This document shows, piece by piece, positions 600 through 34,100 of a stretch of DNA of 64,000 bases. Each line of letters starts with the position of its first letter. Positions within the stretch are counted from its first letter, which is position 1. A model generated the notes under the pieces. The model had not been told where the DNA came from, did not search any database, and saw only the letters and a list, made by a program, of their open reading frames with translations. The translations under genes and the position numbers were made by a program. The stretch comes from Acholoe squamosa (lineage: Eukaryota; Annelida; Polychaeta; Phyllodocida; Polynoidae): NCBI GenBank assembly GCA_949317995.1, contig OX439038.1:70814659-70878658 (forward strand). Reading direction: 5' to 3'.

Positions 600-840
600 T
601 TTGAAAATTTTCAGAACTTGTAGCGTGTTGCTGTAAATCCGCCATTTTGTTAATGTGCTGTTCTCGTCCCTTCGCGCGAGATTACTGACGTCAATGACGT
701 CATTTCCGCCATTGCAAAACCCAAACAGGAAGGGAGGCCAGTTTTGTTTATTTCTGTGTCATTGTCAAGAGAGGTCTTGCGAGCATTACTCAGACGCCAA
801 TTTTCCTATCCAGTACCATACATTCCATCTAGAAGCCAAA
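600..840 (+). promoter_or_regulatory. GABARAPL2 promoter and 5' UTR with a double CRE
   Basis: The 240 bases before the start codon contain two perfect CREB/ATF palindromes TGACGTCA at 686-693 and 695-702, offset by 9 bp, with a CGCGCGAG motif just upstream. A GCCATTTT motif near 641 resembles a YY1 site, and a TTTCCGCCATT follows the CREs. No clear TATA box was seen, which fits a TATA-less housekeeping promoter. The transcription start is not defined; the region roughly 720-840 is probably 5' UTR. Confidence 0.6.
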
Positions 841-3005
<2,165 letters not shown>

Positions 3006-5410: not shown

Positions 5411-5647
5411 TACCGTAATCTCCCGCGTAGAAGACGCGCTGTGCGTATAAGACGCACCCCAAACTCATTACATGCATTTTCGCGTATAAGACACACCTCT
5501 TAGGGGTGATTTTTGTCAATCCAGTACTGTTCTATAGTAAAATTACCCCTCGTATAAGACGCACACCCAACTTGAAAAAATCCTATAAGTCGCACAAGGC
5601 ATTTGTTTGGCGTAGAGGACGCGTCTTATACGCGGGAGATTACGGTA
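5411..5647. mobile_element. MITE-like element, TACCGTA family (copy 1)
   Basis: It begins TACCGTAATCTCCCGCGTA and ends TACGCGGGAGATTACGGTA, long terminal inverted repeats that could be read as TA target duplications around CCGTAAT...ATTACGG. The interior carries several further TATAAGACGCAC-type motifs. It shares its interior with the copies at 11905, 27433 and 60323 (subfamily 1). It is non-autonomous with no open reading frame. Confidence 0.85.
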
Positions 5648-8354: not shown

Positions 8355-9856
8355 ACAGAGAAAAGAAGAAATCCTCTTTCAGAAATATATAGCCATACTT
8401 GACAATTGTATATAAAATGGAAATTTCAGTAACATTTTCAGGGGATATTTCATGATTCATTTTACCATTAATAATTTACTGGGACTGGGACTTTGGGAAC
8501 TGGGTACCAAGAAAGCAATTATCTCTGCTTATCTCACTACACTGCACAAATCACGATGGCTGAACACACTAGGAAATATGAAAGAACAGTTCAGCCCCTG
8601 ACTGTATGCCACATGTTACTCTGTAATTGAAAGTTAAAAGGCCAGCTATGCCTGATAGGCCTTTACCAGTCAGGGTTTGTGTTCTACATGCAGTCAACTG
8701 CCCTTGGAACAGTGGGGAAAAGGGATAGCAGTGACAATATATCTGGAGCGGTCAAGACAAACATGTCTTATAAAATGAGTGTATTACCACTGTCAAAGAT
8801 TTGTATGATTATTTACAGACACTTAAAATTCATGACACATGATATTACATACAAGAATACTACCCAGCTAGAGATTTACAAATTTAGTGTTAATGGTTAT
8901 ATTAGCACCTACAATGGAAGATCAATGAAGTCAAGTAATTTTCAACATCTTATAACAGATAGCACATGTCTGTGAAGTGCCACAATTGCTATGACACATA
9001 TATGATATGACTGATTGCAAGATCTGTCTCCTCTCTATCTCATTTTCTTGTGGTATTTTAACAGAATTCAATGGAAGAAATTCATTCGATGTATCTCTCC
9101 TCCACCAAATCACCTTATACAGTGGGATTTCAACCAAACAGATGAATTCTCTTCCCAATTTAAAAAAATGTGTACCCAATCGTTTCTGATGGTCAAATCA
9201 CTTCTCGCAGCCCCCATGCTATTAAAATGATTTGCTTATGATATAAACCAAAATGTTTCAATGCGTTGATTTTGAATGAAAAAAAAAACAACATTTGAAC
9301 GCCATGAATTAAACTCGATCATACTCGACTGGTTCTTTGAATATAACTATTACTTTATACACATTTTGCACAATGTCCTCTAAACATAATCTTGTCAACA
9401 AAGACTCAAGCATTTACAAGGCATATGGGTGCAAGTATCACATTGTTTATAACAACTTATCACTTGTAGATTTCCACCTAACCAATTATATGGTATTTTT
9501 GGCACAGTTATACCTCATTTTCAGTAGATCTTAAAAAGATAATATAATACAACCATCTATTCCCCAGGACATGATGATATCATCATCATCATGTGGCTGC
9601 TTACAAGCAGAGGATATATTTACATAAGATCACTAATCAAATTTACCCATACGATATGCGTCTATATACAAGACATGACACCAGAGCAATATCAGTCATA
9701 CGTCAACTCACTCTGTATAATAAATGGATGAATTAACCCTAATCAATTTTACACCTGCAGTTATTCACACATTATGAGGCAGTGATATTTGTTCTTCAGT
9801 GATAATTATATTTTGATTGGGAATAATGATGCACCTTGCTTTACATAAAATGTACT

Positions 9857-10109
9857 TTAATCAACTTTTTGTCTTGTCCATTTTATGAGCGTATCAGGTG
9901 AACGGTAGAGGAAGAGGAGTTTGGCAAAGAGCTCCTCTTCTAGTACAAGCTCTCGGACTTCACGTACTAGGTACACGTCTAAGCACAGCTTGAGAACCTT
10001 GTCAACATTTGGCAGCTCTTGGAACATAATTTGCATGCTGAGGCCACTGAAGAAGATCCGGACAAAGCGGCCGATGACAAGTACCAAAGAGACGTAGAGA
10101 CCAATGATT
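9857..10109 (-). CDS. Piezo distal alternative last exon (canonical pore and C-terminal domain)
   Basis: The acceptor at 10111-10110 is followed by 84 codons including the TAA at 9857-9859. The first A completes the Gly codon begun by GG at the end of the 15650 exon. It encodes the inner helix ([17 protein letters not shown]), the pore-neck MFQELP and the C-terminal domain [30 protein letters not shown] in parts closely matching vertebrate Piezo. The hydrophobic-gate pair Leu-Val (mouse L2475/V2476) is kept. At the neck, mouse M2493-F-E-E is M-F-Q-E, so one of two acidic residues is lost. This is the copy most like the ancestral form. Confidence 0.95.
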
Positions 10110-13100
10110 CTGTTCAAATTAGAGGGCCAAAGAAAAGGAAAATTAATCAGAATTTAAACAAACACGAGGACTTGAAGGGATTTAGCATGCGTATTTGTTA
10201 GTATCAATCTGATGTTAACAAAAAATTAACTGCCTGCAACTGAAGGTGCAACTGAAAAAAAAACAACAAAAAAACATGAAACAAGCTTTTGTTTGATAAA
10301 TTCAGTTTTATTTCACATATTACAATATGACATATACATCATGAACAAAACACAATAGACTGCTCAGCTAGGTCTATCTCTTCTTTCAGAAGAACGTACT
10401 TAAGAGTTTTTTTAATGATAATAAAATAACTACCTAATATATTAAAAAACAAATATGTCTTTTTACACTTAATATTCAATATTTAATGCCATATAATTAT
10501 CTTTCCATCACACAATCACAGTGTACAACACTGACACAAGTCATTGCACTCTAAAACATAGCATAAATATAAAAATTCATGTTTAGTTAATATAAATAGA
10601 TTAATATAAAAATACAGTACTAGCATCTCAGAATTCATGATATAATTTACCTCACCTCTATTTTCAAGTATTAATACCAAGTGATGATACACGCTAGGAT
10701 ATAACTTTTAATTCAAAACTTGTCCATATTGCATCATTTGGAATAGGGTTTTACCCAGTACATAAAAAGATGCAGATATCATATGTATCATTATATAAAT
10801 GAAGTCTGAGATGGTGAACAATCAATTGACAGTCAACATGTAGGAATGCTACTATATACCATTTATAAGTAACTGCTTTTTCTTACAGTTTAATGTTTTA
10901 TTGTCCACAATTGATCATATTGATATTCAAGTGTTGCACATGGTTATGCTTTATTTATTGGCCTTAGGTTATCAGCAAAGGTGTTTTCTTTTTCCTATTG
11001 ATAACCTTTTGATAAAATTTTGCACACAAATGATGAAACTGATAATGGATTTTCCAGCATCTGTTGTGGTTATTCCACAGCTGATACCATTAGTAGCCTT
11101 GGGAAAAAAATCATTTCTTTCTTTATATAATATGGTGATGAGCTAATTTGAATTTTTTAAATACAGTTCACCATAAGGGTTTTTGCTCTGTATTAAGTTC
11201 TAAAATTAGCATAAAGTTCAATACTAAATGGAACTAATGTTGATTGTTACACAAAAAGGTATGTTGTGACTCATGACCTACATTCTTGGGCAAAATCTTA
11301 TTTTCTTTTTCCTTTTTTCTATAATAAAGATGGAATATATACCAGTATATGTTGCAAAAACTGCATTACACAAAAGTGCCAAGCAGATAAGGAGTAAACA
11401 TGTATCACAATCCATTTATCTATTTGTATGGTGAGCAACATTACTCAATTCACTTTCCTAATTATATAAAAACTGAAATAACATACGAATGGATGCACTT
11501 ATTTCTAAAATACCATGGTACAACTGCAAATCAAAAGGGATGAAAAAAAAATCAATTTACCCTGTGATTCATCATTGCTTTATCTGTAAATAATTCTGTG
11601 TGCATAACTACCTTTGCAAAACTCTTTTCATATCAATACAAAGAAATCATCCTTTTTGGTTGAATATCAAAAACATAGTTTTATATCATTTCCAAACGGG
11701 CAAACAGCTAATGCTTCTTTAGCCAGTAGGCACAAATGGCAGGGAAGAGGCAAGGGAGGGAATATCTTCTTTTGCATATGATGAATTTACATTCTGCATG
11801 CTTCTCTTTACACACACAAACAGGTCTGAATATGTAGGTTCAGAAGAGCAGATGAAAGAGAGATGAACTTTTGACACATCTTTTGAATTTACTACTGGTG
11901 GTACTACCGAAAACTCCCGAGTATAAGACGCGTCCTCTACGCCAAACAAAATGCTGGGGAGTCTTATAGAATTATAGTTGGGTGTGCGTCTTATACGAGG
12001 GGTAATTTTACTATAGAAATGTACTAATCTTACAAATTTCAGCCTTAAAATGTGCATCATATACGCGAAAATGCATGTGCTAAGTTTGGGGTGCGTCTTA
12101 TACGCGCAGCGCGTCTTCTACGCGGGAGATTACGGTAATCAAGCTTATTAGAGTATAGTAGCATGATACAAACCATGCAGCAATGTTCGACCAGCAGTAA
12201 GGCATTTATGCAGAGGGGCTCGCCAGATAAGAATGCCTGTCATGATAAGTGTATAGAAACGGTTAAATACTGTTCCACATTACAAAAACTGATTAAACCT
12301 CATAGTTTGTAGCCTCTATTGCCAATTTAGATCAATCATAGATATAGAAAAAGAAATGTGTAGATACTATGGAAACACATAATATATATGCCTATCCTTG
12401 CAGATTAAACAGAAAGCAAGATGGACAAAGTACCAGTATATGTAAAGAGATTCAAAGTAGACAAGTCTTTCCTAGGAATGAGGGTTAACTATCATTAATA
12501 TTATGCCGGGTATTACAACATTGTACACCTAAGGACACAAGTATTTACTATGATCAACACACACAGGATAGGTAGCACTAAGTCTATATCAGACACAGGG
12601 TAGATAAGTAGTTAAGCCACACAATGGGCTATGTTATATATAAGAAATTATATTTACTATCAAACAAAGTTTATCAGCAGAATAACCTTCCTAGAAGCTG
12701 CACATGAAATTTATTTGATTATTAATATCTGATAATATACAAAACGTGAAGAGAATATCATACTCTAGACAACATCATTACATATACCAACATCAGTTAC
12801 ACTAAGTTAGCATGTCCTAAGTAACCCAAACAAGGTGTCTTCTTACGATCATCCAATGCCTTCTCATCTATGAAGATTTAACCCTCTTTGGTCTCCACCA
12901 CAGTAAATTGATATAATCTACCATAGAAACCACATAAGATAAATTCTCTCGTATAAGCTATGGCTAGTACCAGAACCCAAATTAAAATGCGGCTTATAGG
13001 ATTGGCCCAAAGTGGGGGTATTTGACACTATAGAATAGTACTGAACCTACAATTATCAAGCCTCAGATGTTGCTCCAACATTGAGGATGCGGCTTATACG

Positions 13101-16100
13101 AGGTTGCGTCTAATACGAGAGAATTTATGGTAATAAACATTCTTATTCCTAAAAAAGTAGGGAAGGTGATATTTCTGAATGGGCAGTGAAATGCAAGAAT
13201 ATCAGATGAAGAGCCTTTATCTATAAAATGACTGTATTTTTATGTAATAATAAGTCTTTTGTAGTGATATCACTTTATAGCATCTGCTGTGCTGTTATTC
13301 CAGGGAAAGATGTAACTAACTATTTCAGCACTGTAAATAAACACCACTACTCTTTAACAGGAGTAGGAATTAATATTTGATTCTGTTAGTTCTAATTGCG
13401 CACACTATTTTTGATTCTCTTGTTTCACTATTTTTCCTGATATGTCAATATTTTATAATTTAACATCAATAACTGCATGAAGAGACATTTAAAGAGAATG
13501 AAAAATTCAAATCCTGCCAATTTCAATTTGAAAATTTTAACACTATTTCACAATTTATTTTAGTCCTCTTTGAATTTCAGAGGCCTGCGGGTAAACTTAA
13601 CACGCGTTTCAGGTGACCTATAGAGGAAGAGGATCTGTGCATAGATGTCCTCTTCAATTTCGAACTCGCGGCACTCACGGGCCATGTAGAAGTCAAGGCA
13701 AAGAGCAAGAACACGGTCAACATAGGGAAGATGTTTGTACATGATCTCTGGTGGAAGTCCTGTTGTTCCAACACGTAAAGCCCGGCCGATCAAAAGGATG
13801 AAGGAGAGATAGAGGCCCATGATTCTGCAAGAACACGGAACATACAATTGTACAAATATTGACCAGTGATAAGGTAAGAAATCATATCTTTACAAACATG
13901 AAAAAGTAAATATAAGCATGCCTTCTCTCTCTGATTTTACCATGCTTGAAAACTCATGAACTTAACAACTGTCCATTACAAGTTTCTGCTAATTGACCAT
14001 TTCAAAGGTTTATAACAGCTTATAGTCTTCCTAAACTCAGGGTGTGGCTTATAAGTTTTCATAATCTGTCCCTGTAGTACTTTAGAAACACAGCTGCGAA
14101 TCTAGACTTGATATTGAATATAAAGGTCAGGCAAACAAACCAGCCTGCCAGACACAACATAGATTTGCCTTTATGTTCTGTGGACACATCAATTCCTATG
14201 TGAATTGCCAACCCTGGTGGGGGCTTTATATTGGAAACAAGACTCTCCAATGTAGTAAAATTATCATGGCTGTAACTTGGAATTTAAAGCTCAAAGAATT
14301 GAAAGTATACAGAAGCAGAGTAGAAAGATAGAGATTGTATAGTACCTCTTTGCTCATGATATAATGTTGTATTAACAATTCTGAAATCCATATGGCATAA
14401 GAATTACAAGCTACAGTATATCAAAGGAATGTTTACTACACTAATACTGATAACAATGTAATGGCACATACTACATATCAACTCACTCTGTACTACAGTT
14501 ATCATATGCAAACAATATTCTGTAAAGTATTCATGCAAAAAATTGTAAGTGCAAATGATGTATAAAGTTATGAACATACCTCTTGTAAATACAGATGAAA
14601 TAAATTATGGTGGAAGGAAGAGCATCGCAGATGACTGTGCTCTTTGGTGTCAATCCATCAAAAGATGAACAACGGTGTAAAAAGACCGATGACTGGCTAG
14701 GTTGTCATCTTTTTATCTACAGCACTATGTGACGCAAAGCAACCAAAGCATGCAGTGTTTGAGAAAACATAAGAAAATGTATATATCTTGAAAAAAATAT
14801 GGATAATCTTGATTTATATAAAAGATTGACATAAGATAAGGGGGAGAAGATAAATACAACTGGATTTTCGCTTCTTTTTTTCTATCCAAACATTTTTTCA
14901 TTAAGGCCACACCAAAAAAATAAGTTGGTCTACGGATTTCCCTCTCCATATTTTCGGAAATACAAATTTTTCTTTGAAAAAAGTCTCGTCTGCGGATTTC
15001 ACTGGCTTCACTTTCTACAAGTTTTCCTTTTGTGATGTTTGGCAAATTTTTTTTTTTTAATAAATTTTTTTCGCTCGCCTCACTTTTCCAGCAAGGAATC
15101 CAATGGACGCCAAAAAAATCTTATAAATAAAATAAAAAATTTGCTCGCTCGCACAATTTTTTTCAAAACCAAAATCCGTAGACCAACTTATTTTTTTGGT
15201 GTGGCCTAAGTTAATCCAGTGTTTAAAAGAAAATTGTAACAAGTATACCTTCTAACATGCAGAACATTATACCATGTCATTAATACTTGATATCAATATC
15301 ATATATACTTCATTATATAAAGCATGTTTGAAATCAACGGACTCCTACAAACATAAAATGAACAAGGGACAACATACATGTGCACCTAAGATCATACATA
15401 CAACATGACGTCATAATATATGCACTGCACACATAATTAAACAAATATCTAACAATGTATAAATAACAGATAGTTTCACTCATGTAACAAACAGGACTAC
15501 AAAAACATTCTTCAACAATACATACAAAAAAGAGCGAAATGGATAATAAAAGAGTACTATTTTTCCATACTTACTTTCCTCACATACCAAACATAATCAT
15601 TAAGAGAAACTGATCACTTGTATGACAACTGATATATGAGAGAACTCACCCATATCCAGTGAAGAAGGAAAGCCCAGCTGGCGCAACACGGTCGCTAAAT
15701 GCCACGATAGTAAGGTGGTTCTTCAAAGACTTGCCACTAGATACATCAAATGGAACTGTCAATGCATATTCTGAGAGCTCCCACCACTGAACTTTAATAT
15801 CCTCTGATTTCTTCAAATCAAAGGTTACATTCGTCTGACCTTCGGCTTCTGTGTTGAGAAAACAATAATACACTGAGAGATGATTGAGAGGTATATTTAT
15901 ATCAAATGTAACTTCCACTTGTAGTATTGTAGATTGTAATTTCTGTATATTAATTTCCTGTGCAGAGTAATACAATATCCAAATTGATAGCTGGAGGGTT
16001 GATTCAGACGTTAAACTTCATGGGTATAGGCATATCTTTCATGAGCTGTATACAATGAAGGAACTTACGTGTAACCAGCGAGGAAACATTTCTTGGAGTT

Positions 16101-19100
16101 TCATTTGGAGGTACTTGCATATACCGAGGGAATATGTCAATAAGATTTCTGCAAAAGATAATTTATTTAACTATACTATTTTATGAACATATAAGTGTGA
16201 AAACAACACCGGAGTGTTAGATATCTCAGAATATATCAGAGTGTGGAACAGCCGGGTGGCAGAGACTTCCCAGCACAATAGTCTGACAAAATATGAACAC
16301 TTAAATTTTCTCCCCTTCTTAATGACCAACTAACCAGAATCCTCTCAATAACATACATGTAATCTTGTCATCGTGAATTTGTAAATTTCTGCATTAGTAA
16401 TGATGTGCTTAAACTTACAGTGGGCTGGTGGCAGTGCCATTGATCAGACTGGCAAAGCTTTGACGTATCGCCACCATCTCCGGTATTTTGGGATTGAGAG
16501 CTGTTACAAACTGAGCAGTCACTTCATTGGAGGCTAACCCATTTGATGGTTGTCTACAAGAAAAAAAGATATCACAAATGTAAGCTTGCAAGATAAGACA
16601 GGTGTCAAGCCTCATATGGCATAATTTCAGCCATACAATTTCAAAGAACGCTTCTTCGTTTAATTGGAGGAAACTAACTATTTTACATACTTCTTGACAT
16701 GTGAAATAATGTAATTCTTTACATGTATTAAGGACACAGTTGTATAAGGTACAGATCAATGACATGGCTTGTAGGATTTGCCTGGGACCAGAGTGTGTCT
16801 TATGCATAGGGTCTTACAGAACTCAAAATAAAGACATAACAGGCATGTAACTTTGGGAGCTCAGATGTACTTGCTAAGAGAGGGATCATGATTATTAAAA
16901 AAAAAAAAAAGCCAGCAATCATGTGGCAAGTGTCAGTAGACCCAAGTAACAATTGTACAAATCTGTGCTAGAGAAAAGTCTTACCTTCCAACTGTGATAG
17001 AAAAGATGAGGTTGATATTGTTCTGACTGTCTTCTAATTCCTGGATAAGAGCCTTTTGACTGGGAGGGCTGATTCCCCAGGTTGCTGTTGATTCACCATT
17101 AATGAATATAAAGGATACATCCTCTGCCTTATATGAGCTCAGCCAAGCAGTTGCTTCCTGAATCATTTAGAAGTATGCATTTTAAATATTTGAATATACA
17201 AGTGTATAATATCTGCATGTACCAAGTTCATAATTTCTCTTATACAAGGTCTGAGTGTAGAATCTTATAAAAGAATTACACAATGTACTGTGGTGGTTGG
17301 TCGTCACCTTCGTCCACCGTCGATGGTTATAGTATGGTCATTCAACCATAGCGAGATTACTCTAGGTTATTTATATCATGTCACGTGGATCCCTCCACTC
17401 TACTATAAAAGGGGGGGGGGGGGGTCTTGTCATCTCCCTGGGTTCAGTCCTGGACTGACCACACAAGTGTTCAGATATACTGATCCACTGTGTCACAGGT
17501 TTGATACTCTCCCTAGCGGCGCTTATAAAGTAAGTATTGACTAAGGTCTATACCTATGTGATATACCTCGACAGAGCTTGCTCTTGAGTATCTATAACTG
17601 TTGATAGCCGAGGCTACTACTATGCCACTGACATTTAGACATGTTTACTGGTGTATATGAGAGACGAATAAAGAACAAGCTGGAACCTGAGTTGTATGTC
17701 CTTGTCTTTCTTGCATAAGATTACAATCGACTAGGGTACGGAACACTACAGTACTATACCGCACTACCTATCTGGCGGAATACCAAACTTGGGTAAGCAC
17801 ATTTTACAAAACAAAAGTCATATGAAAAAAAAACAAACAATTGGATTAAAATATTTTAGAGAGCAAGAGAAATACCAAGCACACAATGAGCTACTTACTG
17901 GTTCTCTAGAGTAATAACCCGTTAGTACATTATATTCCGCTTCTGACAACCGCTTTATAAACTGCTGCTGGACACTCATTTTGAAGATAGGCTGTGGAAA
18001 CAAACATAGTGAAATGGCATTATTGCATCAAGGTTAATCATAAATATGATGCTGTCTCCCTTGAGCCTTACTTCATCGTATTATGTTTTACTGGTATAAA
18101 TTTGAATCATTGTTGTATAATTTAGTTGTCAAAGTGATTGATGACTGAAAGCATTAACTAACGTCTACATGCAACTATGAAAGTATGTAAAAAAAAACAA
18201 ATATGTATCTTTTAAAATGAAATAAACAAAGCTATATCACACACCTGATATCCACCCAGTGCAACCTGGATGTCACAGCTCACTGGTGGATTGACTTGGT
18301 AGAGAACCGTATCGGCGAGGGAGAAGAGAAGGAGCGGGAACCAAATGATGAAGATAAGGAGGAAAAGGATGAGGCCACCCATGCCGTACTTCACTGCTAA
18401 CTGACGAAGCTGACCACGAGGTGTTGGATATGCCTTGAAAGGAGAATGATTTATGGTTATGTGAATACAGATTATTGATCCCCCTTGGATAAAGGTTCTT
18501 CTCAATTCTGGCTCAGGTGTCATAAAAAGACACACTTATGAATGATCTCATTGTCTCAGCTTGATAAAAAGATAGATATAGAAAATAGGATATAAGATTA
18601 ACAGTTTTCAAACACTCTCCAGAAAAATGCAAATACAAATTTTCATATGAAATCATAAAATCTGAATATAAACTAGCCCACGCACATCTTCTGCTCTCCG
18701 CCAGCACTTGAGCTGGAATATGTTGGCGTAGATGTCTTCCATCTCTAACCAGGATGTAAGCGCAAGCGTTGTGTCTGTCCACATCCAATCCATTAGAGCC
18801 CGCAGCTCAAGCAGGAATGGCACAGCAAGGAATCTGAAACAGCCAGTACATTAAAAAATTGCTAGTGATTTTCCCCCAACACAATTGAATTAGGTACTAT
18901 ACATGCTACTTTGCCAAAAAGAATTGTTGATATTACAATCTTTTATGAATAGATAGATATAAGAGCAACCAGAATGTAAGTTGCCACAAATTTAAAGTTA
19001 TTTGTTTTAATTCAAACATAGACAACATCCTTACCCCTTGAAGAGGAACAGGTTGACATAGTTGTACTTCTTTGTGAGGAAGTTGCCCAAGATACGCGTC

Positions 19101-22100
19101 GGGTACCCAGAACGAACTTGGTATGCCGAGAAACCAAAGTAGATACATTTGACGAAGTACCACAGCTGCGCCGGAATGTTGTCTGTGAAACTCCTGCAAT
19201 GATCAACACACAAATGCCATCATAGGATTTCTTTTATCAAAAATACTATAATCATATTGTACATTGAGAAGTTCTTACCCTGAACCAGTTGGTTTATGCC
19301 ATTATAGTGCATCTAGGTTAAGCTTTATTGCGTCATTTAACACCACCACCAGTTTGTAGTTGCCCTATTTCAGACCACATGTTCCCCACATCTGTACCCA
19401 TCAGAACATTCTAAATAATTATTCTCTCCTTAGGCTCATGTGCCAAACTTTTCTTCTTCATTTTCAAATTCCTTGTCAAAACCAACTTATAACTTCTGAA
19501 AAAAGGCTACCAGTAGGCTAATAACCATGCTTTTATAACAATAGATAGCTTGACTTATAAATAGGTCTTATGGTAGATGGAATAAAACCATAGTGTTGTA
19601 GATTTTAATACAATAGTAGAGAATAGTCCTGTGAGACATGGCGCGGCGACTTGTTATCTTGTGTCTAGTTTCAGTTGGTGAGACAGATAGGGCGTACTAT
19701 CATCTGGGCTTTTGGTAGTATATAGCACAAATTCAACCTGAACTACCCACTGCAGCTAAGTACTAATAGTCTGTAGACTGTCCATTCTGCATGCACCTCA
19801 CTCAGCTGCCTTCAATGTTCAATGCCATAGTCAACAGGTGTGTCATTATGAGTGTACACTGTCTCAGATTGCCAGGAGCCTGCTCTGCCTGCTCCCCCCC
19901 CCCCACACACCCAACTGCCTATCACTTGTAATAGTCTGTACCTCGTCACGGGCCAGTGGTCAGCAAACCGGCCAGATCACTCCACCTCTCTGTAGAGGGG
20001 GAGCACAGTGTAAGTACCTCGGTGTACATACATGTTTTCAGTGTTCCACAAAATCGTTTATATAATGAAAGGAGTAATCAAATTGATCTTTCATCACCAA
20101 TTTTAGATACATATTCTGAGATAGCATTATTTAAATGTAAACTAAAAATTTTACACAGAAAAGAATGTAGCAGTTCCACAAGGTGGCCTTACACTTCAAC
20201 CTCCTCTGATTTACAAAAATGCACATATGGCAACACACACTTTAGCACTGATTTCTCCATATAGATCTTTGACAGTGAATACTTTGTTCAAATACAGAAA
20301 ATATGATCCAATTGTACCATAACCCACTGAGATAAAACCTGTACTACATATATATAGTAGTTTCAAAACGAACAATTCTAAAACAAAGGCTACAGGGATG
20401 TATTTCTGAATCTTAAAATGCTCTAATGCTAATCTGCCATAGGGCTCCAAATGATGAAATGTCTTATCTGCGAATAAAATCAAAAGTATGAGATATATTC
20501 TGAAACTTCCTTCACTGATAAGTAAAGTACACACACTGTTGTTATTACATTAGAATAGTGAGCAGGAATAGTCCATAGCAGAGGAGCCACAAACAAAAAT
20601 AGATTGCAAGGCCTCCCTATCCCTTACACCGTGGTGACTGTGAACCATACACTAGTCTACTCATCTCACGAGTAGTACTCACTAGTCGCCGCGCTAATAA
20701 AGCAGTTGACTTACCTGTTTGTCAGAAGAGGTAGGAGGAAGAACATGTAGAGATGGATGAATGCTACCAGAATGATCTGGTAGATGAACTTGCCAACTAC
20801 CTGCTTCCTCAGGTACAACGCTCGGTCGATGATTATTAACACAAACTGTAGCAGTAGCATGATCAGGAACGGCACTGGCACCTGGTAAGAGACATGATAT
20901 TATAATTCTACATGGGGGAAAATGATCCATCCTGAAAAGCATTGAAATTGTGGAATGGGAGCCCTTGAACAGACTCTCCATAATGGACTTGAAAACTAAG
21001 AAATCCTTTATGAGTTTCATCCATGTATATACACCACTTCTGATCAAAGTTTTGGTAAAAGAAGGAGATTCATCACAAGTTACACCTCAGTAACAGTGTT
21101 ACTGTATTACATCATTGGAACAGTCAACACTGAATAAATGAACATACCTTATTTTCCTGTAGTACATCTGTCACGACTGTTCCTCCTGATTCCGAAGCCT
21201 TAAACAATGTTTGTATGATTATTAGAAAGTACATCTCCATGATAAATTAACAACATAATTGATATAACATTCTCTTCTACACTATATTCCCAAGCTGTGC
21301 AATTCTATTTTGTGCACTTTGTAAAGGTAAAAGGATTAAATTTGAGAATGGGAGCATTTACTATAAGATGAAGATATCTATATAAATCTCTGTATTTCAG
21401 TCACGGAAGACTTTTCCCAGGAAGTAGAAACAGGAGATACATTTGTTTTGTGAAAGTATGACAGTTTAAATGCAAGAGGCTACAAATAATGCACTAAGGT
21501 ATGACAGTCATACAGTGTGAAGTGACAGGGTTAGGTTAAGCGGGTCCAAATCTGTGGTTCAGACTTTTTCATTTGCGGAGTTGTTTTAGGATGACCTAAT
21601 GGTAAATGAGAACTCAACTAAGGCCACACCAAAAGAATAAGTTGGTCTACGGATTTCCCTCTCCATATTTTCGGAAATACAATTTTTTTTTCTTTGAAAA
21701 AAATCTCGTCTACAGATTTCGCTCGCTTCACTTTCTACAAGTTTTCTCTTCATGATGTTTGGCAATTTTTTTCGCTCACCTCACTTTCCAGCAAGGAATC
21801 CATTGGACGCCAAAAACTTCTTTAAAAAAAATTTTTGCACGCTCGCACCATTTTTTTTCAAACAAAAATCTGTAGACCAACTTATTTTTTTGGTGTGGCC
21901 CAACTGAAAAAGCCACAATATGCGACACAAAGAAATCACGCTAAGCAATGGAGATCAGTAGTAGTTGTCATGGGTTTGAGCAAGATAATCACTACCATGT
22001 CTAAACTAAAGCAAAGCAAATGTCTTCTATCATGAAGACTACTGGTATAGGATATATTCACTTCCCTCATAATAGAAAATAGTTATACATGAAACATTAA

Positions 22101-25100
22101 AGAGGAATGAAAATACTTACACCTAACCCACACAATCCCATGGTAATAAACTCTAAATGATAGCTAGATGTATGATTGTATGTATTTCAAGATACCAAAG
22201 CTGCTGAAGAAGCTATATCATAAGAATACCTTTTTTTCACTCTGATAATATTCAAACAGTACTATGTAGGTGTAAACTTGTAGCAACACTTATATCCCCA
22301 TTTCCAAAATTGGGAAATTCAGGAACTGGATGAGAAAAAGAATTCTTGGAGCATTTCTTCTTTTTCTGACTAGTGGGTTAGCCATGATTCACTGGAGGCA
22401 GCCTGTTGACGGATAGCTCAGTCCTGCCATGTGCAGTTTTAGATGAATTAATGGCAAATTCGGACACTGGAAGTGGCTGTTAATTTCATTTCCTATTAAA
22501 TATCAACCCCTTGCTCTCTGAATATAATCAATAGGGCTACAGGCAAAGTACTCTTGGTTTGAACAGGGGATACAAAATGTCATATACACTCAGAGATAGG
22601 GGAAAAAATGCAATGTTCTTAATACGTAGCACCTGTTTCTTAGTCTTGTCTCGCACACCTTTTTTTTCGTACATTCTGAATATTATCTACAAATTAATCA
22701 TACTTCAGAAATAAAGCGTTCCATTCTGAGCATGTATCCGTATTGCGATACAGCACCGAGGCATTCTTTGTTAAACCTTGTTAAACCTAGCACTTATGTC
22801 GGAAGGCACTTATATGAGATCCCATTGTAGTTGAGTTCGAAGAACCATCTACTTCTAGCACTTGCTCGAGAACAATGCTCTTTGGATACTTTTCTTTTTC
22901 TTTTTAAGAAAACAATCAGAAAAAAAACTTCTTTGATTGCGATATACACATTTCTATGAGTTATGCATTGATCAACTGCAATGTGAATTAAGCTCCCCTG
23001 AGAGCTTTAAGCCTAGGCAGTCACACTCCAAGTCTTAAAGGACTTACATGATGCCCTGGGGCCTAATAGAAGCAACAATACAAGGAAAAACAACAGGTTA
23101 AGTCAAAAACCACTGCAAATATAAGCCGTCTTTCCCCCATTGTGCATTGCTATTTTCTGAAGACCAAGCAACCCTGACTTGTTATTTTAAAAGTCAGTAC
23201 AACTTTTTCCTCAAAGTTTACACCCAGCTTTTAACTGGGGTTAGCATATGTGTGGGGTTTTACTGTAGTAAATCTAAAAGGAAACTAAAAGGGCCACAGT
23301 ATTTTGAGGACTCCATAGTAAAGACACATTCTGTATAATATATATAGTATGAGGTACTCTACACAAATATTTCTAAGCGTGGGTGAAGAAAGGACTAGGT
23401 ATGACACAGCTTACATTACAGGGGAAGAAATTAGAGATTTCTTTTTCTTTGAGGCTTATAATTAATTTACATTACTTCAGGGTGATTTCAATTGATATAA
23501 TCAAATATTCACGGACTGGCTTTTATGAAACATGTTAAGGCAATTGTGATTATTAATTATTTCCATGGCTCCAAAAAGCTTGGGAAATTTCTTTAGGTGG
23601 TTCACTGATTACAGAGGGACACTTCCTACTAGTGACAAGTGTGTTTCACATGATAATACATATTAAGTGTTTTGGTAAGATTGAAACACATCTTAATGAC
23701 GAAAGTATTGTAAATTCATAGTGTAGAACATTTTTATGTTATTATGATTTTGTTTTACACAAGTCTGTATCCAACTGAGTTTTCCTAACTAAAAATCTCA
23801 CTCACTAACACTGTTATTTTTTTTTCTGTGATTGTAAGTTTATTACTACCGTAGGTCGGCAAGTATGGAACATCTTAATTTAAGGGTTCACTCTTATCAC
23901 ACGGTCAATCCAAGAAATAAGGACAAATCTAAATCATAACATGGTAGAGCTGTTCTGACCCTTCAAGGACAGCAAAATGCTTCAAATGTCATGTCCATTT
24001 GTTGTCACAAGTGGCGAATTTTCAAAAGGAGGGGGCGCGCCCCTTCCTCAGAATAATAGGAGGGGATCCAAAACCCTATTTTTGGCTAAAATAGATATAT
24101 ATCCTAAAAGAGGGAAATCAACTCTTAGACCTGTACAGGCAAAGAGGACGATGCAAGTGCCCCTGCACTACCGTCTAATTCTGCTGCTGGTCATTCTGTT
24201 CCACAGACGAGTAACTCAATGTTTGTATATTGCAGCACCGTGCTGAGCCTTCAAACAGGTATCAAACCTGCATGGTCAGCATGATGCATGAATGCAGTCC
24301 TGCTGAGTTACTCACCTGGGCTGCATTTATTCATTACGACAACATATGGACATAACAGAGTAAGGCATTATGGGACCCTTAAAAGGTTTGGAGGCAACAT
24401 GCAGATGGTCAGGGAAAGAATCCAGGTCTGAGAAATCAAAACGTTCAAACAACTCACTTTGTCTGCACCAACAAATGGCTACACGCCACAGAAAACATAA
24501 CAGACTTTTAACATAATTGCATAACATTTCTTAACCCTTTAATGGCTGCATAACCCCTCCAGTCCATCGTCCTGATGCACCAATGGAGCACTATCATGTA
24601 AATTGTCAGCGCTACATTTGTACATCATGCCGACCCGGTAGGGGTGCATTGACCCCGCACGGTCCGCTTGATACTTGATTGCAGCAATGGTGAGTTACTC
24701 ACCAAGGCTGCATTCATGCATCATGCTGACCAATGGTAATAATACACCAATACACTATATATGCCTTTAAAGGGTAAGATTTAGCAGAATTAACAAATGA
24801 TACCAACATTCACAATTTGGAAGTTTATGCTATCACTTTACCCCGATTAAAAATTTGGAGGGTAGATCCCAGTATATCACCGAACAATTAGTTGGGAAGG
24901 ACATGATTTGAGGGTTCTTTATGTACCGTAATCTTTCGCGTATAAGGCGCACCTCGCCTATAAGGCGCACCCCCAACTCAGGGAGGTCTGTTATAACATA
25001 TAAGGCGCACCTCTGAGGGCAGATTTTTGGTAATTTAGTACTGTTCTATAGTATACCTCTGCAGCATTTTGTTTGGCCTATAAGACGCGCCTTATATGTG

Positions 25101-28100
25101 GGAGATTACGGTAGGTGTTTGGTCATTTAATGTGAGATACATGAATGTGTTTCTTATATTCTATCTATAATGATTGACAGTATATTTTTTTTCAATATGT
25201 AAATTACATGTACTGTACCGGTATAGCAAATTATATTAATATAGTTTTCCTCTTTAGTTAACGGGTAGCGTGTCTTTGTGTTGTTTTATTTCGCTTGTTT
25301 GGTTGTTGTTTTTTAGTTGGTTGTTTTTTGCCTTATCATTACTCATGTAACAAGGGTCAATTATGGTCGCCTTTCTGTATATTTTCTATATCACTGCATT
25401 TTAAATGAAGCGATTATGATAACTACTCCTATTATCAGTGACGAAACACTCCGTGAACTACTTTTCCATTAGCATTGTCACACATAGTTTTTCCACAAAA
25501 CATTTGATGTTGATGCTACCGCGCGTTTCTCATAAAGAAATTGCTGTTCAACTATATACATGTATACAAATGATTGAAAAAAGTAAATGTATGGTACTGT
25601 GTAACACCACTGGGATTTATATTTCGACACAAGTAGGTCTACAAACGTCCATTGGGAGATTTGACAAATACTCAACAGTATTAAGATAAACTTTACTTTA
25701 CTATACAATATTAAAATGGTAAAAAATATAGTAAATATATATAGATAAATTAAAGGTTTCACTTACAGAGGGTCCAAATGACTGATAGCCAAATACGACA
25801 ATGAAGAAGTTGATGAAGTCGCAAAGGAACATGAGCGCATAGACATCGGTGGCTGCGTTAAACTTGGGGTTTGTCATCTGGTTGTAGAACTTACGGAATG
25901 GCTGCCAGCATGCATCCCGCACTCTGCACATATGCAAAAGTCCAATAAATATTTTGAACAAGAAATCATTCTAAATCTGTCTCTTTTATAATGCATTGAA
26001 ATAGCTTGTTCTTCCACTTAATAGTTTTTATTGTTGTTTTTTCCCCTTCTATTTGCTATCTAAGTTTTACACATCGAAATGTGACTACGACAGGATTGTT
26101 TATTTCGTTAAAAAAAATAATAAGACAGATGTACTGGTACTGGTAGATTCTACATGACAATCCTCAACAAATAAGTTCTTGCCTACTGAGTAGATTTGTA
26201 TTTTTTTAACAAAAAATTGTTTATGAGATACCGGGGTTATTTATTTGACATAATTGCTTAATTCTCAGAAATATACTTAATATGATTGATATTAAAGTGG
26301 ACATACTCGTTAATACATGGAAGGTATTCTATATTAAACGCTACACAGGGAATCAGTTGTAAAATTACTTAACCTTATGCTAAATGTCAGTGTAACTAAA
26401 TAGAACACAGCAAACTACCAAGTAACACAATTATTGTACAGTATGCTATTAGCGCTATTTCTCCATCTATTGCATTATTGATTAAAATATAATTGATTAA
26501 TGAGTTAATAGAAATGAACAACATCGTTTTTGAAATATCATATGGCAGGCCTGTGATAATTCACAGCTGTGATTGTGTGCCACATTTGTGAGAGTTACTA
26601 CTTTGTTGTAGTGAATAACACCCTGGTGTGTATTTATTCGGGGTGACATGATTACTGGTACGCACAATGCGTTATCATGATTAGCTCTTAAGACTTATTC
26701 AAGGTATACTTCTAGAGCTTAAGAGTTATCAAGAGACCATCCCCACTTCCCAAGCTGGGTATATACAAAACCATGGGTTATTCAAAACCTAGTACTTACA
26801 GACAAAAATACATTATATAAATACAATGTAGATAATTTCTTAAAGATCTATAAACATATCAACATGAACATTGTAAGGACAACAGTCCATAAACTGGCTG
26901 CGTCCTACCTTTTTGCTAACTCTTTTATATGGTAGATATATTCCAGCCCATTGTCATAGTGGGCACCAAACTCGTACCACCAGGCTAATATGTCACTGTC
27001 GATAGAGTCACTCTCATCACGACCTTCTGAACTTGGCGTGTACTCTGAATCGTCCTCAGATTCAGACTCTGGGATTTGACTCAGAGTCCTGTACCGAAGA
27101 ATTGGGATGGTTAGGTTTGGTAATGAAGAAGGAAACCGGAGAGGACCTCTTCTAGGCAACTGATAGGGATCTAATATCATAGCGGGATACCACTCTTTCA
27201 TCCCAAACCAGGTACTCCAATACTGGTCTATAGTTCTGTGTTTGAATCATACTGAGGGTCAAGCGCTTCTAACTACCCATAGGCTGGAAGTTCCTTGATG
27301 AATTAGGCACTTAGCTATATGTCCAAAGTGTGGAGGGAGATCTGCCCCAGAGTCCAGAGTGCCTATTTAGATAGATTTGTATAAATCTTTTTAACGATTC
27401 CATGGGATTATTGATAAAATGTTATGGGACACTACCGTAAACTCCTGCTTAGAAGACGCGCTGCACATATAGGACGCACCCAAAACTCAGCACATTCATT
27501 TTCGCATATAAGACGCACATTTCAAGGCTGAAATTTGTAAGATTACCGTAGTACATTTCTATAGTGAAATTACCCCTCGTATAAGACGCACCCCAAACTT
27601 GAAAAAATCCTATAAGACCCCCCAGGCATTTGTTTGGCGTAGAGGACGCGTCTTATACGCGGGAGTTTACGGTAGTTGTTTTTTTAGCTACTTTGGTGTC
27701 CCAATAGCAGAGACACGTTGGAATGAGATATTCCTTTTTTGTTGTTTTAATTCATGCGTGCACTTTTGTACACTCACATACCGGCATATTGAACCTGTAT
27801 CATGCTGATCTGCTTGACAATATAATCTCTAAGGACATAGTAAGGTATAGGACACCAAACCACTTAGACCTTAGACACTTGATTAGACACAAATTACTCA
27901 TCACACCACAATTTACAAATCACAAAACCACCACCATTTTGTCATGCCTTTATGTTACAAACCTTTTCACTTTTACACTGAAATATTGAAGACATGGAAC
28001 GGTAACAGGAATGCCAATAAGATTTCAGAGGTCCCAAATACCCAAAGCAAGCAAGATACATTTGCATAAAACCAATGTGAATAAGATTGAACGCGTGCTA

Positions 28101-31100
28101 TGCACGACTGGCCCAGGTCTTCCACTACTTACCATAGGGGACTGTCAATATAGTGACAGTGTGTCCGAGTTGTCAATAGTTAAGGCTATGGAGAATGCAC
28201 CCATTATCGCTCGCATTTTTCATTGGTGAATAACTCCTCTCCTGGCCAGTTAAGCATTGCACAATATCAGCAGGTCTTGAATAAGGATCCATATTAACCA
28301 AAAAAGGCATGAGACACTGTAATTCTCCTCCATTTTGTTATAATCAAGCAGTTTCGATGGCACCGTAAGTCAATCCTCTCCCTGTCCCGCCATTTTGGAT
28401 TTTGCTGTTCTGTGCGCATGCGCGACTCCTTCCTTGTTGGAAGTTACATTTTCGACAGAAAAACAATCGATTCTATAGATTTAACTTGAAATTAATGGCT
28501 TTTTGAATATAATCTATGCATTTTTGGCAATATTAATCAATTTGAATTGATGACATCCCCTCAATTTCTTGTTAAACGAAAAATAAAATCTGACGACCGG
28601 TCACTCTGCACACATGCGTCAAGTCTCCTTGCCAGAAGTGCGGCGGTCAACATAACAAAAATATGGTGGTCCAATTTACAGTTACTTATATAAACGGTCT
28701 TAACCCGTCCTATACAGAAAATTCCACCTTACCTGCTGAAAAAAGCGTCTTAATTGCCCAATTCCCATAGGAGCCAATGTGTTATTTTGACCCCCTGTTG
28801 ACAGCCGAAATTGACCACCCAATGCAATCCTATGGAGCCTCGTTTTTATGAGAACATGTCAGGTTTTTTCTTCACCCTTTTTCATAGGTAAAGAAATTTC
28901 TTTTTCAAGAATTGTTACCCTGTACAGACAGACAAGGATCTAAGGAACATGCATCAACTTTCCATTAATTTCTAGACCCCTTTTTTTATAGAAGCAATTC
29001 CCACTTAAATTCGGCCATCTTGACTGACTGAAAACTGCTGAAAAGGCGCCACCAATGACCCAGGAGGACCTGGGCCAATAATGGAAATGTGTACTATGAA
29101 GCGGTGCTAATCATGAAATATGGCTCTTTTGAACTTTTCTATAAACGTTCCTTTAATTACAAAATTGCATTGGTAGGATGAAACTGGGAAGCAGCAAAGA
29201 CTATGATTCTATGTGAAGTATATAGAGAATTGCAGAGCGATGAGACAAAGCAGTTTAGAGAAGGGCTGTGAATATTTGAAGGTAAGCATATTGAAGAATT
29301 CCTTTAAAAGAGCCTTACCCTGGGCTTGGACGCTTCTTTTTCGTTTTCTTTTTCTTGGGTTGTTCTTCACCGCTATCCTCACAGCTCTTTATGGCTAACC
29401 CTGCGCCGTCATCCTCAAGGCTACCAGTGACTTCCAGCAATGAGTCTGACTCAAATACCTCATTCTCAGCGCCTTTGTCCTTGGCGGCAGCCATTTTTTG
29501 TTCAAGCGAGTGTTGATCGGTGAAGCTGACAGTGGCAGTTTCTGTGACCTTTATTGAGGAAAAAGTATGGTTATATTCTAATCTCTGGTCTGTTCAAAAT
29601 CCTTGGTTCTAAGTTGAAAGGTTTACTGAGCACATGATTCACTAATTGACCGAACTGAATAGCTGGGAGAAATTCAAAGGTAAACATAAAATACACTGAG
29701 CAAATTTAGGAATACCAGTACATTCAATATTTTGGCACCGCTGAATGTAACTGAATACTTTTGCAGGTCTTCCACCAAGCCTGGTGATTATCTTAGTCCG
29801 TTTTGAAATAAACTTTTTAAAATATCCTTTCATAGCGTGCCGTCTGATTGATTACTCTCCCCCAAAAGAACAGTACAGACCCAAATTTTACAAACATCTT
29901 TTTTATATGATTGGAGAAGCATCTCTCGCGATTTCGAATGGCCTGATGGCACAGTAGCGCATGAATAGAGTTTGGTGAAGGACCCACTTAAGCACTATTT
30001 CTGCTTCACAGCTTGGAACATGCCTCATTCAACACCCCACCTACTGCTAATTTCACATATGATATATAGCAGGCTGAAACTGAGAAGAATATATACAGAA
30101 GTCAGTCCAGTTGCGTCATTCTGTTTTGGGAGTGCATAAAATGAAATAGGAAGAGTCTTGGGGTTGGTTAGTTGAATGCTCTATTATCTCTTTCAAGACA
30201 AAAACAGGGCTGCTATTGCTAAAATCTCAGGCATTAAATACTTCATTCAAATTCTTCAAGGTACTTGCCACAGACTCTTGACAAAATTACTGGGAAAGTC
30301 TTTGGTATGTATAATATACTGCTAGTGTTCAGTTGTTGTTTTTTTTTAATTATTCTATTTTTCAAATCGTCAGTACTTGATGATCTACATTTTAGTTATT
30401 TCAGTTTAACAACTTAGTACAGGCAGTAATAAAGGCCAAAAACCACCACATGCTTTGGATAAATAATTATATAAATACAGGCTACGCAAAATCCATATCA
30501 CCATATAAAGTGCAAGGTAAAATCAGATTAAGAAGCTTGATATGACTGAAAGACTAAGTCACATAGAACTAACATGATTTTGATCGTTGTAATTGTAGGC
30601 ATTGGCGAGACGGTTATCTCCTATATCAGAGACCTTCAGTCCCCAACTAGTTTCGAGTGAGGCGGTAAGGTAGATAGACTGTCCCTGGTGCATTAACAAC
30701 AGAGGGAGAGGAGCAGAGAAAATGAATTTCTTTTTTTTTTTAATTTGCCTTAACATTTAGATCTTTCAATTTCTTCATCCTGGTGTAGAAGCTATTTGAT
30801 TGAATTTGAAATGTACATATATATAATTCTGAGTAACCTTAGCAATACTTTATAAGTTCTCTATCAATGTGGGCCATCTTTCATATACTATCTATGAGCC
30901 TTAACATGTTTTCCCCTCATACAAAATCTACTTACTGGAGAAGTGGCACCCGGTGATGGAAGTGGTGAGACCTGGCGGCTCATCTCGTGATCCTGTTCAG
31001 CCTTGGCCAGGTCAGCATCTGCGTCCTCTGCATCTTTCCACAAACCGTTACGCTGAAACACAAAGAGTTGGTTGTAAAATGTATAAGATGTTACTAGATG

Positions 31101-34100
31101 GGAAGGAAGCTAATTGAAGAAAGGTCCACAAACTGTTTTATTAGCTAACCCGAAAAAAAAAATCCTCATTACTGGAGGGGAAAGAACACATTGGAGAATG
31201 GTAGAAGGGGGAATATTTTTCTTTCTATTTTCATGCATCACTTACCAGGTCTACATTCATTTAAAGTGGTGCCAAAGAGCATTAGTCAGTACTCACCTTC
31301 AGAACTGTACGATGGATGAAGAGGCACACCAGAAGGAACAGGTCAAAGGCAGCATAGACATCTTTCTTCTCGATACCGATGATACGCGGTGGCCAGAAGG
31401 GTTCGCCATCATGTATGGTAACTGTCTCATTCCATGGGAAGAAGCCAAATTGGAACAGATACTTGACCACTACGACAGCCTGTATAGGATTGAAATGGAA
31501 GTTTATATAATGCTATAAATGACCTTCTTGTAATGAAAGCACTGTCACAATAGAAACTTCTCGGCTCTCAGGTTTAACTGAGGATACCAATTCTGCCTAA
31601 GAAGAGGGAATTAACAACTTGAACCATCTAAGGTTAAAAATTGTTCATTATCTTTATATCATTGTGTTGGCGTCCTCCTATACAGCATACCTCAGTGTAG
31701 GTGATGATGGTGACCCAGTAGGTCTTGGTGGGTCGCGGCACAGACAGCATGGCCCAGATAAACACAGAGATGGGGTACGGCATAGAAAGTAGACTTGCTG
31801 ATACCAGGTGGTTAAGAATCATGGCAAAGTAACACAGCATCTCTGATCGTGAGATGAGTGCCTCAAACAGAGCGATAAACAGCTGGAAGATACGCGGGGT
31901 CTTCTCACGGAATTCCTCCTCTGCATCATGTACTTCCTCCATCTCTTTTTGGTCCTCCAGTTTCCTGTTGGATTAGTCATAATTGACCAGGATATAGACC
32001 AGGATTACTGGGCATAAAAAAACTAAAAGATTCTAGTTTTAATGGTCTAGATATAAACATGCCTATTAACCTTGAGGAAAGAAGTAAAGGTCTTCTTGGC
32101 ACTTCTACCTATTTTTTTCTGACACTGGAAATTTTGTTTAGTATTGAGACTACTGACTACCGTAATCTCCCGCGTATAAGGCGCGTCTTATACGCGAATC
32201 AGGTCGTTCATGAGTCTTATACGCGAGAGCAAGGCTGCCTTGAGTAGGGGGTGTGCCTTATATGCAGGCTGCACCTTCTACGCGACAGATTACGGTAGTT
32301 TGAGGAGGGGCATTCACACACTTTCAGTACCATTCACACCCTTTCAGTACCTTACTGCTGTAAAGGTGACTTTGTGGCATGATATAGAGTTTGCGGTGAC
32401 TTACCTTGCGGTAAGGTCCAGGTCCAGGCCAGGATGCTTGCCGTGTACATCTACCTCCACAGTTTTTGGGTCAGTCACTCTGAATAGGAACACGGAAAGG
32501 AGAGCTTTGAATATATTTGAAATTCTAGTTGAAAATGCTGAGAGAGAAAGTAGCACAATGAACTTTAGACGGTCATATTTCACGAGTCTTGGCCTGCTTC
32601 AGCATTATAGCAGTTTAACTGCTGTTTTCCTATAAGCAGGAAAAGAAATATAGATATTGAGCTATGACAAATCAAAACAAAGACGACACTTACTGTTCAA
32701 TATTTTGAGTCTCCTCTTCCAATGCAAGTGGGGCCAATGCAGCTCTCCGCTCTTCCTGCATAACATAAAGAATGAATGTGGCTTTAAGAATGGTACCATA
32801 CATAGATTTACAGTATTTCAAATTCCAGTATGTCTCTAATTCAAGAGGTTTATTCAATGATAATCTTATCCGATTTTCATAAGGCATACCTTCATGCGTC
32901 GTTTTTCAGCTTCTTTGTCTTCATCCAGCACTTTGGCAACTTGGCGGTACTCATGGGAAATATCCTCCAGGATGCCAATAAGGTAGTCGAGGAATGATCC
33001 AATAACCGCCCAAGTCAACTTCAAACTGTTCAATATCCTTGTGCACAGATCCTCTATAAGCAGAACGCACAGAAGTCAAGTAATACTGGTGGCCTTAGTA
33101 AGCCTTGAGTTGATAACTGAGAGGGGTGATCTTTACTTTGAGAGAAGGGGGAAATGAGAGCAAACCTGCGACTTACAAGGTAATATCTGTAGATTATCTT
33201 ACTTTATAGAACATAACACTAGATTTGATAGCCTACAAGGAGTTTTGAAGTAATCTTAGCTTGGGGAAATGGGTCCTATTTCTTTTACCTTTTGGTGCTT
33301 CCCCTTCAGGTTCATCTTGGTCAGTGGGAGACTTCCCATCACCGCCGTCTGATTCACCGCTGGTGGAGGGTTTTGGTGATGGTGGAATGTCTTTACCACC
33401 AGGTGCCGTCATGGGAGAGGTGGGTGTTGTTGGGTCTGACTCCGATATTTGTCTCTCTACCAGTCTCTCTTGCTACAGATTCCAATTAAAATATTTGTAT
33501 TAAATTCCATCGCAAAGAACAAATATTTTACAAGATCCTTCAGATCACCGTCTAGCCCTAGTTCAATGATCGTCTCCAATATATTCAAATTTACTCGACC
33601 TTGTGAGGGTGGCATGGTGCTTCAATTCCCTTTTTGTTGGAATGGCACTTAAATGCAGCACTGGCAGTAGAGTTGCCAGTGCTGCATTTATGCATGCATC
33701 GATCAGGCGCTTTAACCATACATTGGCCACTTCGTTTATTTTGTCATAATTTATATCTATTTCTAACTGTACCAGAATTTATGTTATCCCCTCTACCTAT
33801 AGTATCAACCATCACCATGAAAGGGCCATTAAAGTAAGGAGAACCATGACTCGTATCTAACTGATTGGTGTATGGATCATTATCATTCATGCGACCACCT
33901 CCCATAAACAGTTTAACCCGACTGATGTTACTACTGCAGTACTACACATTCTTGAACACAAATTTAAACCATTTTTGTCCTTTTAAAGAAACCTTGGAGC
34001 CATTCCAGATAATGTGTAGGCTCTTGAAGGTAGAGAGGGTAGAAATATATGCTTCAGATAATGAGAATATACTCCTAGATTAGTGGCGGATTTAGAGGGG

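What the first reader, a model, noticed from the sequence alone, without database searches (positions are those of the whole stretch)
9857..13824. Two intact, in-phase alternative last exons for the Piezo pore
The exon ending at 15650 (split Gly codon GG/A) can splice to 13824 or to 10109. Both targets begin A-ATC in the same phase, both encode a complete inner helix plus C-terminal domain, and both end in a stop. By hand alignment they are about half identical, so the duplication is old, yet both are free of stops and frameshifts. Only one set of upstream exons exists, so this is exon duplication and not tandem genes. Swapping the whole ion-exit module by terminal-exon choice would be a simple way to make channels with the same force sensor and different conductance, selectivity or inactivation. 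I know of no description of this arrangement in Piezo.
Basis: partly seen in the sequence, partly recalled or inferred. Interest (0 to 1): 0.93.

Follow-up and report, generated by a model that had tools for sequence, protein, structure and literature searches.

The report
Piezo channel with two pore exons
An animal's apparently only Piezo touch-channel gene carries two different, intact versions of its final exon, so the cell could build the same force sensor around either of two ion pores, one of them lacking the acidic residues linked to calcium selectivity in the mouse channel.

Summary
On the minus strand one Piezo gene (exon model from about 62.7 kb to 15650) is followed by two intact terminal exons, 13824-13560 (PROX) and 10109-9857 (DIST). 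Both join the 15650 donor in the same phase and both align from mouse Piezo1 2466 to the C-terminus. No third copy was found in the window. In the 1.48-Gb assembly the cap family matches only this locus. The two are 52% identical, dN 0.38, dS about 1.7. PROX is not private to this genome: three database proteins (94, 71 and 65% identical) form a clade with it. A wider tree group ("type A", 22 rows) takes in a Physella acuta Piezo model called isoform X3, but by plain identity its other 18 rows are nearer DIST, so that wider link is tentative. PROX-type exons change pore positions: V2476L, F2485T, F2494Y, E2496H, E2495 to K or I. Best reading: alternative last exons that swap pore properties, analogous to NALCN pore exons. 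No transcript was seen; function is inferred. Eight literature searches aimed at it found no earlier description.

The parts
15650..15848 (-). last shared Piezo exon (end of extracellular cap), ends in a phase-2 donor GG|gtgagt at 15650/15649
   Evidence: donor score 3.4 in the exon model; its ORF matches Pfam PF12166 positions 149-218
13560..13824 (-). PROX: proximal alternative terminal exon (pore-lining inner helix from mouse 2466 plus C-terminal domain, TAA stop)
   Evidence: acceptor score above 99.5% of all AG on the strand
9857..10109 (-). DIST: distal alternative terminal exon, canonical Piezo-like sequence, TAA stop
   Evidence: acceptor score above 91.4% of all AG on the strand
16069..62711 (-). 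upstream exons of the same Piezo gene (home-made model, 53 exons including the last shared one, some of them spurious; the start of the gene was not found in the window)
   Evidence: Pfam PF15917, PF23188, PF24874, PF12166 on pieces of the model; 24 of 53 model exons overlap tblastn matches of Physella acuta P0124
13554..13559 (-). AATAAA directly after the PROX stop codon (candidate poly(A) signal; next AATAAA at 12715-12710)
   Evidence: consensus match only
10110..13553 (-). 3.4 kb between PROX and DIST in which no Piezo body exon was detected
   Evidence: no P0124 match at E<=0.01 here; P0124 itself detects 24 of 53 model exons, so a weak exon could be missed

Best explanation
One Piezo gene has two alternative last exons made by an old duplication of the terminal exon. 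The donor at 15650 is joined either to PROX, whose own stop and poly(A) site end the message, or past it to DIST. Each message encodes the same blades, anchor and cap but a different pore-lining inner helix and C-terminal domain. The DIST form should behave like a usual Piezo. The PROX form should have altered permeation (the acidic vestibule residues of mouse, E2495/E2496, are K/H in PROX and Q/E in DIST) and altered inactivation (V2476L at the gate, F2494Y at the MF constriction, FF at 2484-2485 becomes GT). Shown: anatomy, phase, intactness, a single cap locus, divergence pattern, homologues of PROX elsewhere. Inferred: that both are spliced and translated, how the choice is made, and every functional difference.
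For: Both exons intact, in phase and full-domain. PROX-DIST nucleotide differences fall 29/16/48 on codon positions 1/2/3 over 80 codons; NG86 dN 0.38, dS 1.73: coding constraint since the split. The 500 bases of intron before each exon are no longer alike while two stretches of the exons are 69% and 76% alike. Of 123 database proteins, three are nearer PROX than DIST: P0001 94%, P0002 71%, P0003 63-65%; with PROX they form a clade: 98/94, 95/95, 99/92. Wider type-A group: 22 of 126 rows, 99/83 (its bootstrap had not settled); 19 of those 22 rows again one side of a branch, 99/97, in a 50-row tree. A full-length Physella acuta Piezo model, named isoform X3, falls in that group, and in tblastn its end matches PROX (E 5e-26) better than DIST (E 7e-19). 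19 of 20 type-A fragments have S or R (codon AGN) just before the first Ile or Val, as an acceptor AG in this phase gives; P0002 starts too late to tell. The cap family occurs only at this locus in the 1.48-Gb assembly. Residues: neither 2495 nor 2496 acidic in 11 of 22 type-A rows against 1 of 107 others with letters there; 11 aligned positions fixed in 4 PROX-type rows and different in 4 DIST-type rows, among them 2476, 2494, 2496. E2495/E2496, L2475/V2476 and M2493/F2494 matter in mouse Piezo1 (PMC7796548, PMC6349400, PMC10531961; passages).
Against: No RNA evidence. No DNA of any relative was obtained, so both exons in one gene are seen only in this genome, and dN/dS across species could not be computed. 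By plain identity all 18 type-A rows other than PROX and P0001-P0003 are nearer DIST than PROX; for Physella 58% to PROX against 61% to DIST. The wider group therefore rests on a tree of about 87 columns, where long branches may mislead. The group was named from that tree, so its residue signature is partly circular; P0087, inside the wider group, was dropped as a long branch and counts among the 'others'. At 2485, 5 of 108 others also have T, three of them next to type A in the tree. V2476L is not special to PROX: 12 of 22 type-A rows keep V and 21 of 108 others have L; Y at 2494 occurs in 8 of 108 others. The S/R mark is not special to type A: 76 of 112 other proteins show it. dS 1.73 is near saturation. 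DIST has no AATAAA or ATTAAA within 3 kb of its stop (nearest 3,059 nt). The AATAAA at PROX would leave a very short 3' UTR. The substitutions seen here are not those tested in mouse in the passages read.
Confidence: 0.75

Rival explanations
1. PROX is a coding-looking relic or a rarely used exon; the real gene uses DIST only.
For: DIST is the canonical sequence (70% to a bat Piezo2 C-terminus); no transcript seen for PROX.
Against: Open frame, strong acceptor (above 99.5% of AG on the strand) and constrained divergence; a 94% identical open homologue plus two more distant ones. A strong first acceptor would be hard to skip always (inference).
Confidence: 0.1
2. The two exons descend from two tandem Piezo genes; the body of the second was deleted, leaving its last exon. 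Type-A exons elsewhere are then last exons of a separate Piezo paralogue, not alternative exons.
For: Octopus and leech are each reported to have two Piezo genes (PMC12919962, PMC7992859; passages). Holding PROX,P0001 together with DIST,P0005,P0007 is rejected (p-AU 0.0037). The one Physella model seen has one exon type only.
Against: Concerns origin, not present anatomy: here both exons follow one upstream gene and the cap family is found nowhere else in the assembly. The wider seven-row test is not rejected at 5% (p-AU 0.061).
Confidence: 0.25
3. Lineage-specific duplication of the last exon followed by fast divergence of PROX; the wider type-A group is then a tree artefact or convergence.
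For: Seven-row one-clade test p-AU 0.061, not rejected. All 18 other type-A rows are nearer DIST than PROX by identity.
Against: Intron flanks unalike, dS about 1.7, PROX-type homologues down to 63% identity, five-row test rejected (p-AU 0.0037).
Confidence: 0.15
4. Assembly artefact joining two haplotypes or two loci.
For: None found.
Against: 52% protein identity is far beyond haplotype divergence; long contig (the window lies at 70.8 Mb on C4) and only one cap locus.
Confidence: 0.02

Closest known systems
NALCN alternative pore exons 15a/15b and 31a/31b (Senatore et al. 2013, PMC3557258; abstract, outline and section 6 read)
   Same: Single channel gene in invertebrates; a duplicated exon carries the pore; an acidic permeation residue (E) is exchanged for K; reported in molluscs and other phyla.
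   Different: NALCN exons are internal, mutually exclusive exons, with transcripts shown; here the exons are terminal, each with its own stop, so choice is coupled to 3'-end formation. The Piezo residues are vestibule residues, not a P-loop filter.
Vertebrate Piezo1.1 (exon 30 skipping) and Piezo2 splice forms (exon 33 and others), as reviewed in PMC12490864 (passages)
   Same: Splicing changes permeation and kinetics of a Piezo.
   Different: In the passages read, splicing removes the lateral plug or other segments; none exchanges the pore helix.
Ordinary Piezo terminal exon (C-terminal end of Pfam PF12166)
   Same: DIST is an ordinary member; a phase-2 start before the first Ile is common among database fragments.
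   Different: A second, divergent copy in the same gene.
Tandem duplicated exon substitution events (PMC9741552; seen in a search listing only)
   Same: Homologous exons exchanged by splicing.
   Different: Here the exons are last exons with stops; whether that paper covers such cases was not checked.

Membership tests
Piezo channel gene | Pfam Piezo domains in order (TM25-28, THU, THU9-anchor, cap) | tested here: met
   (three pieces of the exon model and single ORFs)
Piezo terminal exon (inner helix and C-terminal domain) | aligns to the end of PF12166 and to solved Piezo chains through the C-terminus | tested here: met
   for both exons. AlphaFold models of single exons were of low confidence (pLDDT 67 and 63); Foldseek for PROX put Piezo1 6bpz first but at E 0.1
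Alternative last exons of one gene | one donor, two acceptors in the same phase, each exon with a stop | tested here: met
Alternative last exons of one gene | one set of upstream exons | tested here: met
   window; whole assembly, cap family only; other families unanswered
Alternative last exons of one gene | functional poly(A) site after each | tested here: inconclusive
   AATAAA at 13559 after PROX; only variants within 3 kb after DIST
Alternative last exons of one gene | transcripts using each acceptor | not testable with these tools
   no RNA data available
NALCN-like pore-exon switch (works like) | exchange of acidic permeation residues between copies | tested here: met
   DIST Q/E, PROX K/H at mouse 2495/2496, so one acidic residue differs between the copies; homology to NALCN is not claimed
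NALCN-like pore-exon switch (works like) | different ion selectivity of the two forms | not testable with these tools
   needs electrophysiology

The most novel reading that the evidence does not exclude
An ancient pair of alternative Piezo pore exons (A and B), older than the split of the lineages that carry type A, lets animals with a single Piezo gene make two mechanosensitive pores from one force sensor: a usual calcium-permeable one and a type-A one with neutral or basic vestibule residues and a changed inactivation gate, in parallel to NALCN.
Probability: 0.35. Interest if true: 0.88.

Novelty: new variant of a known kind. Interest (0 to 1): 0.75.

Why it matters
Vertebrates get different Piezo currents from two genes and from splicing of intracellular segments. 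Here choice of the last exon would change the pore itself. If both forms are made, nature has supplied a matched pair of Piezo pores on one sensor: a direct test of which residues of the inner helix and vestibule set calcium permeability, conductance and inactivation, and of how touch cells with one Piezo gene could get different currents.

Tried and rejected
Third or decayed copy of the exon: none at E<0.1 in the window. Tandem second Piezo gene: no body-exon match between 13560 and 10110 or in 1-9856 (the Physella query detects 24 of 53 model exons), no other cap locus in the assembly. DNA of relatives in viral and prokaryote contig collections: none. Structure prediction of single exons: helical, low confidence, weak fold match, not used as evidence. 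tRNA and Rfam (gathering thresholds): nothing. Shared intron sequence before the two acceptors: none detectable in 500 bases. The first exon model was too strict and was replaced; some exons (for instance the one in the 36.9-37.1 kb repeat) are probably spurious, which does not touch the last exons. Species of the window: not identified; Physella, Magallana and Tegillarca are among the named relatives, so a mollusc is possible, as inference only. Papers: ten searches; passages read in PMC7796548, PMC8042031, PMC12490864, PMC6349400, PMC10531961, PMC8924262, PMC12919962, PMC7992859; abstract, outline and section 6 of PMC3557258.
Full report
What is there. The minus strand of the window carries one Piezo gene. 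A simple exon model with splice-site and codon scores traces it from about 62.7 kb to 15650 in 53 exons, some of them surely wrong. tblastn with a full-length Piezo of the snail Physella acuta (P0124) overlaps 24 of these 53, in order and once each; only the terminal exon is found twice, as PROX and DIST. Pfam recognises TM25-28, THU, THU9-anchor and cap in pieces of the model. The start of the gene was not found in the window. After the donor at 15650 come two terminal exons, PROX (13824-13560) and DIST (10109-9857), both starting A-ATC after an AG and both completing the split codon GG|A. Both run from mouse Piezo1 residue 2466 to the C-terminus without a stop or frameshift.

More than chance. 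Pfam E-values are 1.9e-29 and 1e-41. No other copy occurs in the window at E<0.1, and no Piezo body exon was detected between PROX and DIST or in the 9.8 kb after DIST. A search of the whole assembly (1.48 Gb, 63 contigs; the window is C4:70814659-70878658) with the cap family gave 4 matches, all at this locus: DIST, PROX and two upstream cap exons. Searches with other Piezo families or a whole Piezo protein did not complete.

Age and constraint. The exons are 52% identical as protein. Over 80 codons, differences by codon position are 29, 16, 48; dN 0.38, dS 1.73, near saturation. The 500 bases before each acceptor share nothing detectable.

Relatives. A search with PROX found 4 proteins among 6 candidates; a search with DIST found 183, of which 120 are listed. 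Of these 123 distinct proteins, 3 (P0001, P0002, P0003) are nearer PROX than DIST. They form a clade with PROX (98/94; 95/95; 99/92). A search with a spliced protein ending in PROX, scored on PROX alone, found 10 full-length Piezos: 1 snail, 8 vertebrates, 1 caddisfly; the snail (Physella acuta, named isoform X3) scored best at 60%. In the tree of 126 of 130 rows (P0116, P0087, P0061, P0046 left out as long branches) a wider type-A group of 22 rows has support 99/83 and includes the Physella model; the bootstrap had not settled. In a 50-row tree that I chose, 19 of those 22 rows are one side of a branch, 99/97. Against this, by plain identity the 18 type-A rows other than PROX and P0001-P0003 are all nearer DIST, the Physella end by 61 against 58%, though its tblastn E-value is better for PROX. 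So the small PROX clade is firm and the wider group is tentative. DIST groups with P0005 and P0007. Holding PROX,P0001 together with DIST,P0005,P0007 is rejected (p-AU 0.0037); the seven-row version with P0002 and P0003 is not at 5% (p-AU 0.061). The duplication is thus probably older than the lineages that carry P0001 to P0003, but a lineage-specific origin is not excluded. Of the 20 type-A fragments, 19 show S or R just before the first Ile or Val, as expected for an acceptor AG in the same phase, and P0002 starts too late to tell; 76 of 112 other proteins show it too, so the intron position is old and not special to type A.

Residues. Numbering follows mouse Piezo1 by the alignment. PROX / DIST: 2473 F/L, 2476 L/V, 2480 A/F, 2484-2486 GTT/FFS, 2494 Y/F, 2495 K/Q, 2496 H/E. 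At 2485 all 22 type-A rows have T or S; 5 of 108 others have T. Both 2495 and 2496 are non-acidic in 11 of 22 type-A rows and in 1 of 107 others that have letters there (P0061; P0110, listed, is gapped). Eleven positions are fixed in four PROX-type rows and different in four DIST-type rows, including 2476, 2494 and 2496. Not all are special: L at 2476 occurs in 21 of 108 others and Y at 2494 in 8 of 108. In mouse Piezo1, E2495/E2496 are said to bear on calcium selectivity, conductance and block (PMC7796548) and on ruthenium red sensitivity (PMC8042031); L2475/V2476 form the hydrophobic inactivation gate and M2493/F2494 contribute (PMC6349400; PMC10531961). L2475, R2482, P2536 and E2537 are kept in PROX, so it still looks like a channel. 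The type-A group was defined on a tree of the same residues, so its signature is descriptive.

How it most likely works. A first-acceptor (PROX, score 3.7) versus second-acceptor (DIST, 1.1) choice, with an AATAAA directly after the PROX stop and another at 12715; DIST has only variant signals within 3 kb. Use of PROX ends the message; skipping it reaches DIST. Since each exon holds the pore helix and the vestibule, the result would be two pores on one force sensor. Piezo is a trimer (general knowledge), so mixed trimers might give intermediate channels. Shown: anatomy and relatives of PROX. Inferred: expression, regulation and function.

Compared with what is known. It works like the NALCN pore exons of molluscs and other invertebrates, where an E or a K is spliced into the filter (PMC3557258), but with terminal exons and in an unrelated channel. 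Known Piezo splicing, in the passages read, removes the lateral plug or other segments (PMC12490864). Eight searches of the open-access library aimed at it listed no report of a duplicated Piezo terminal exon; listings were read, not every paper. Octopus and leech have two Piezo genes, so type-A ends elsewhere may belong to separate genes; that is the main open question.

Noticed in passing
window 5427-5631, 7065-7147, 11921-12121, 24940-25090, 27467-27658, 60339-60525 and others: Dispersed repeat family built on GTATAAGACGCAC on both strands: 41 matches with up to 2 mismatches against 0.77 expected; copies lie between PROX and DIST. Looks like a miniature inverted-repeat element (inference).
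   Followed up: partly
window 14878-15233: Inverted-repeat element (62-nt arms, 81% complementary, 232 nt apart) inside the intron between the 15650 donor and PROX.
   Followed up: no
window 7189-7572 and 7940-8132: 86-bp GC-rich minisatellite in two arrays (4.5 and 2.2 copies).
   Followed up: no
window 36920-37094: 15/30-bp tandem array with open frames of Gly-Pro-rich repeats; the exon model took part of it for an exon, probably wrongly.
   Followed up: no
window 9857 down to 6797, minus strand: No AATAAA or ATTAAA within 3 kb after the DIST stop; nearest AATAAA at 6797, so DIST has a variant signal or a long 3' UTR.
   Followed up: partly
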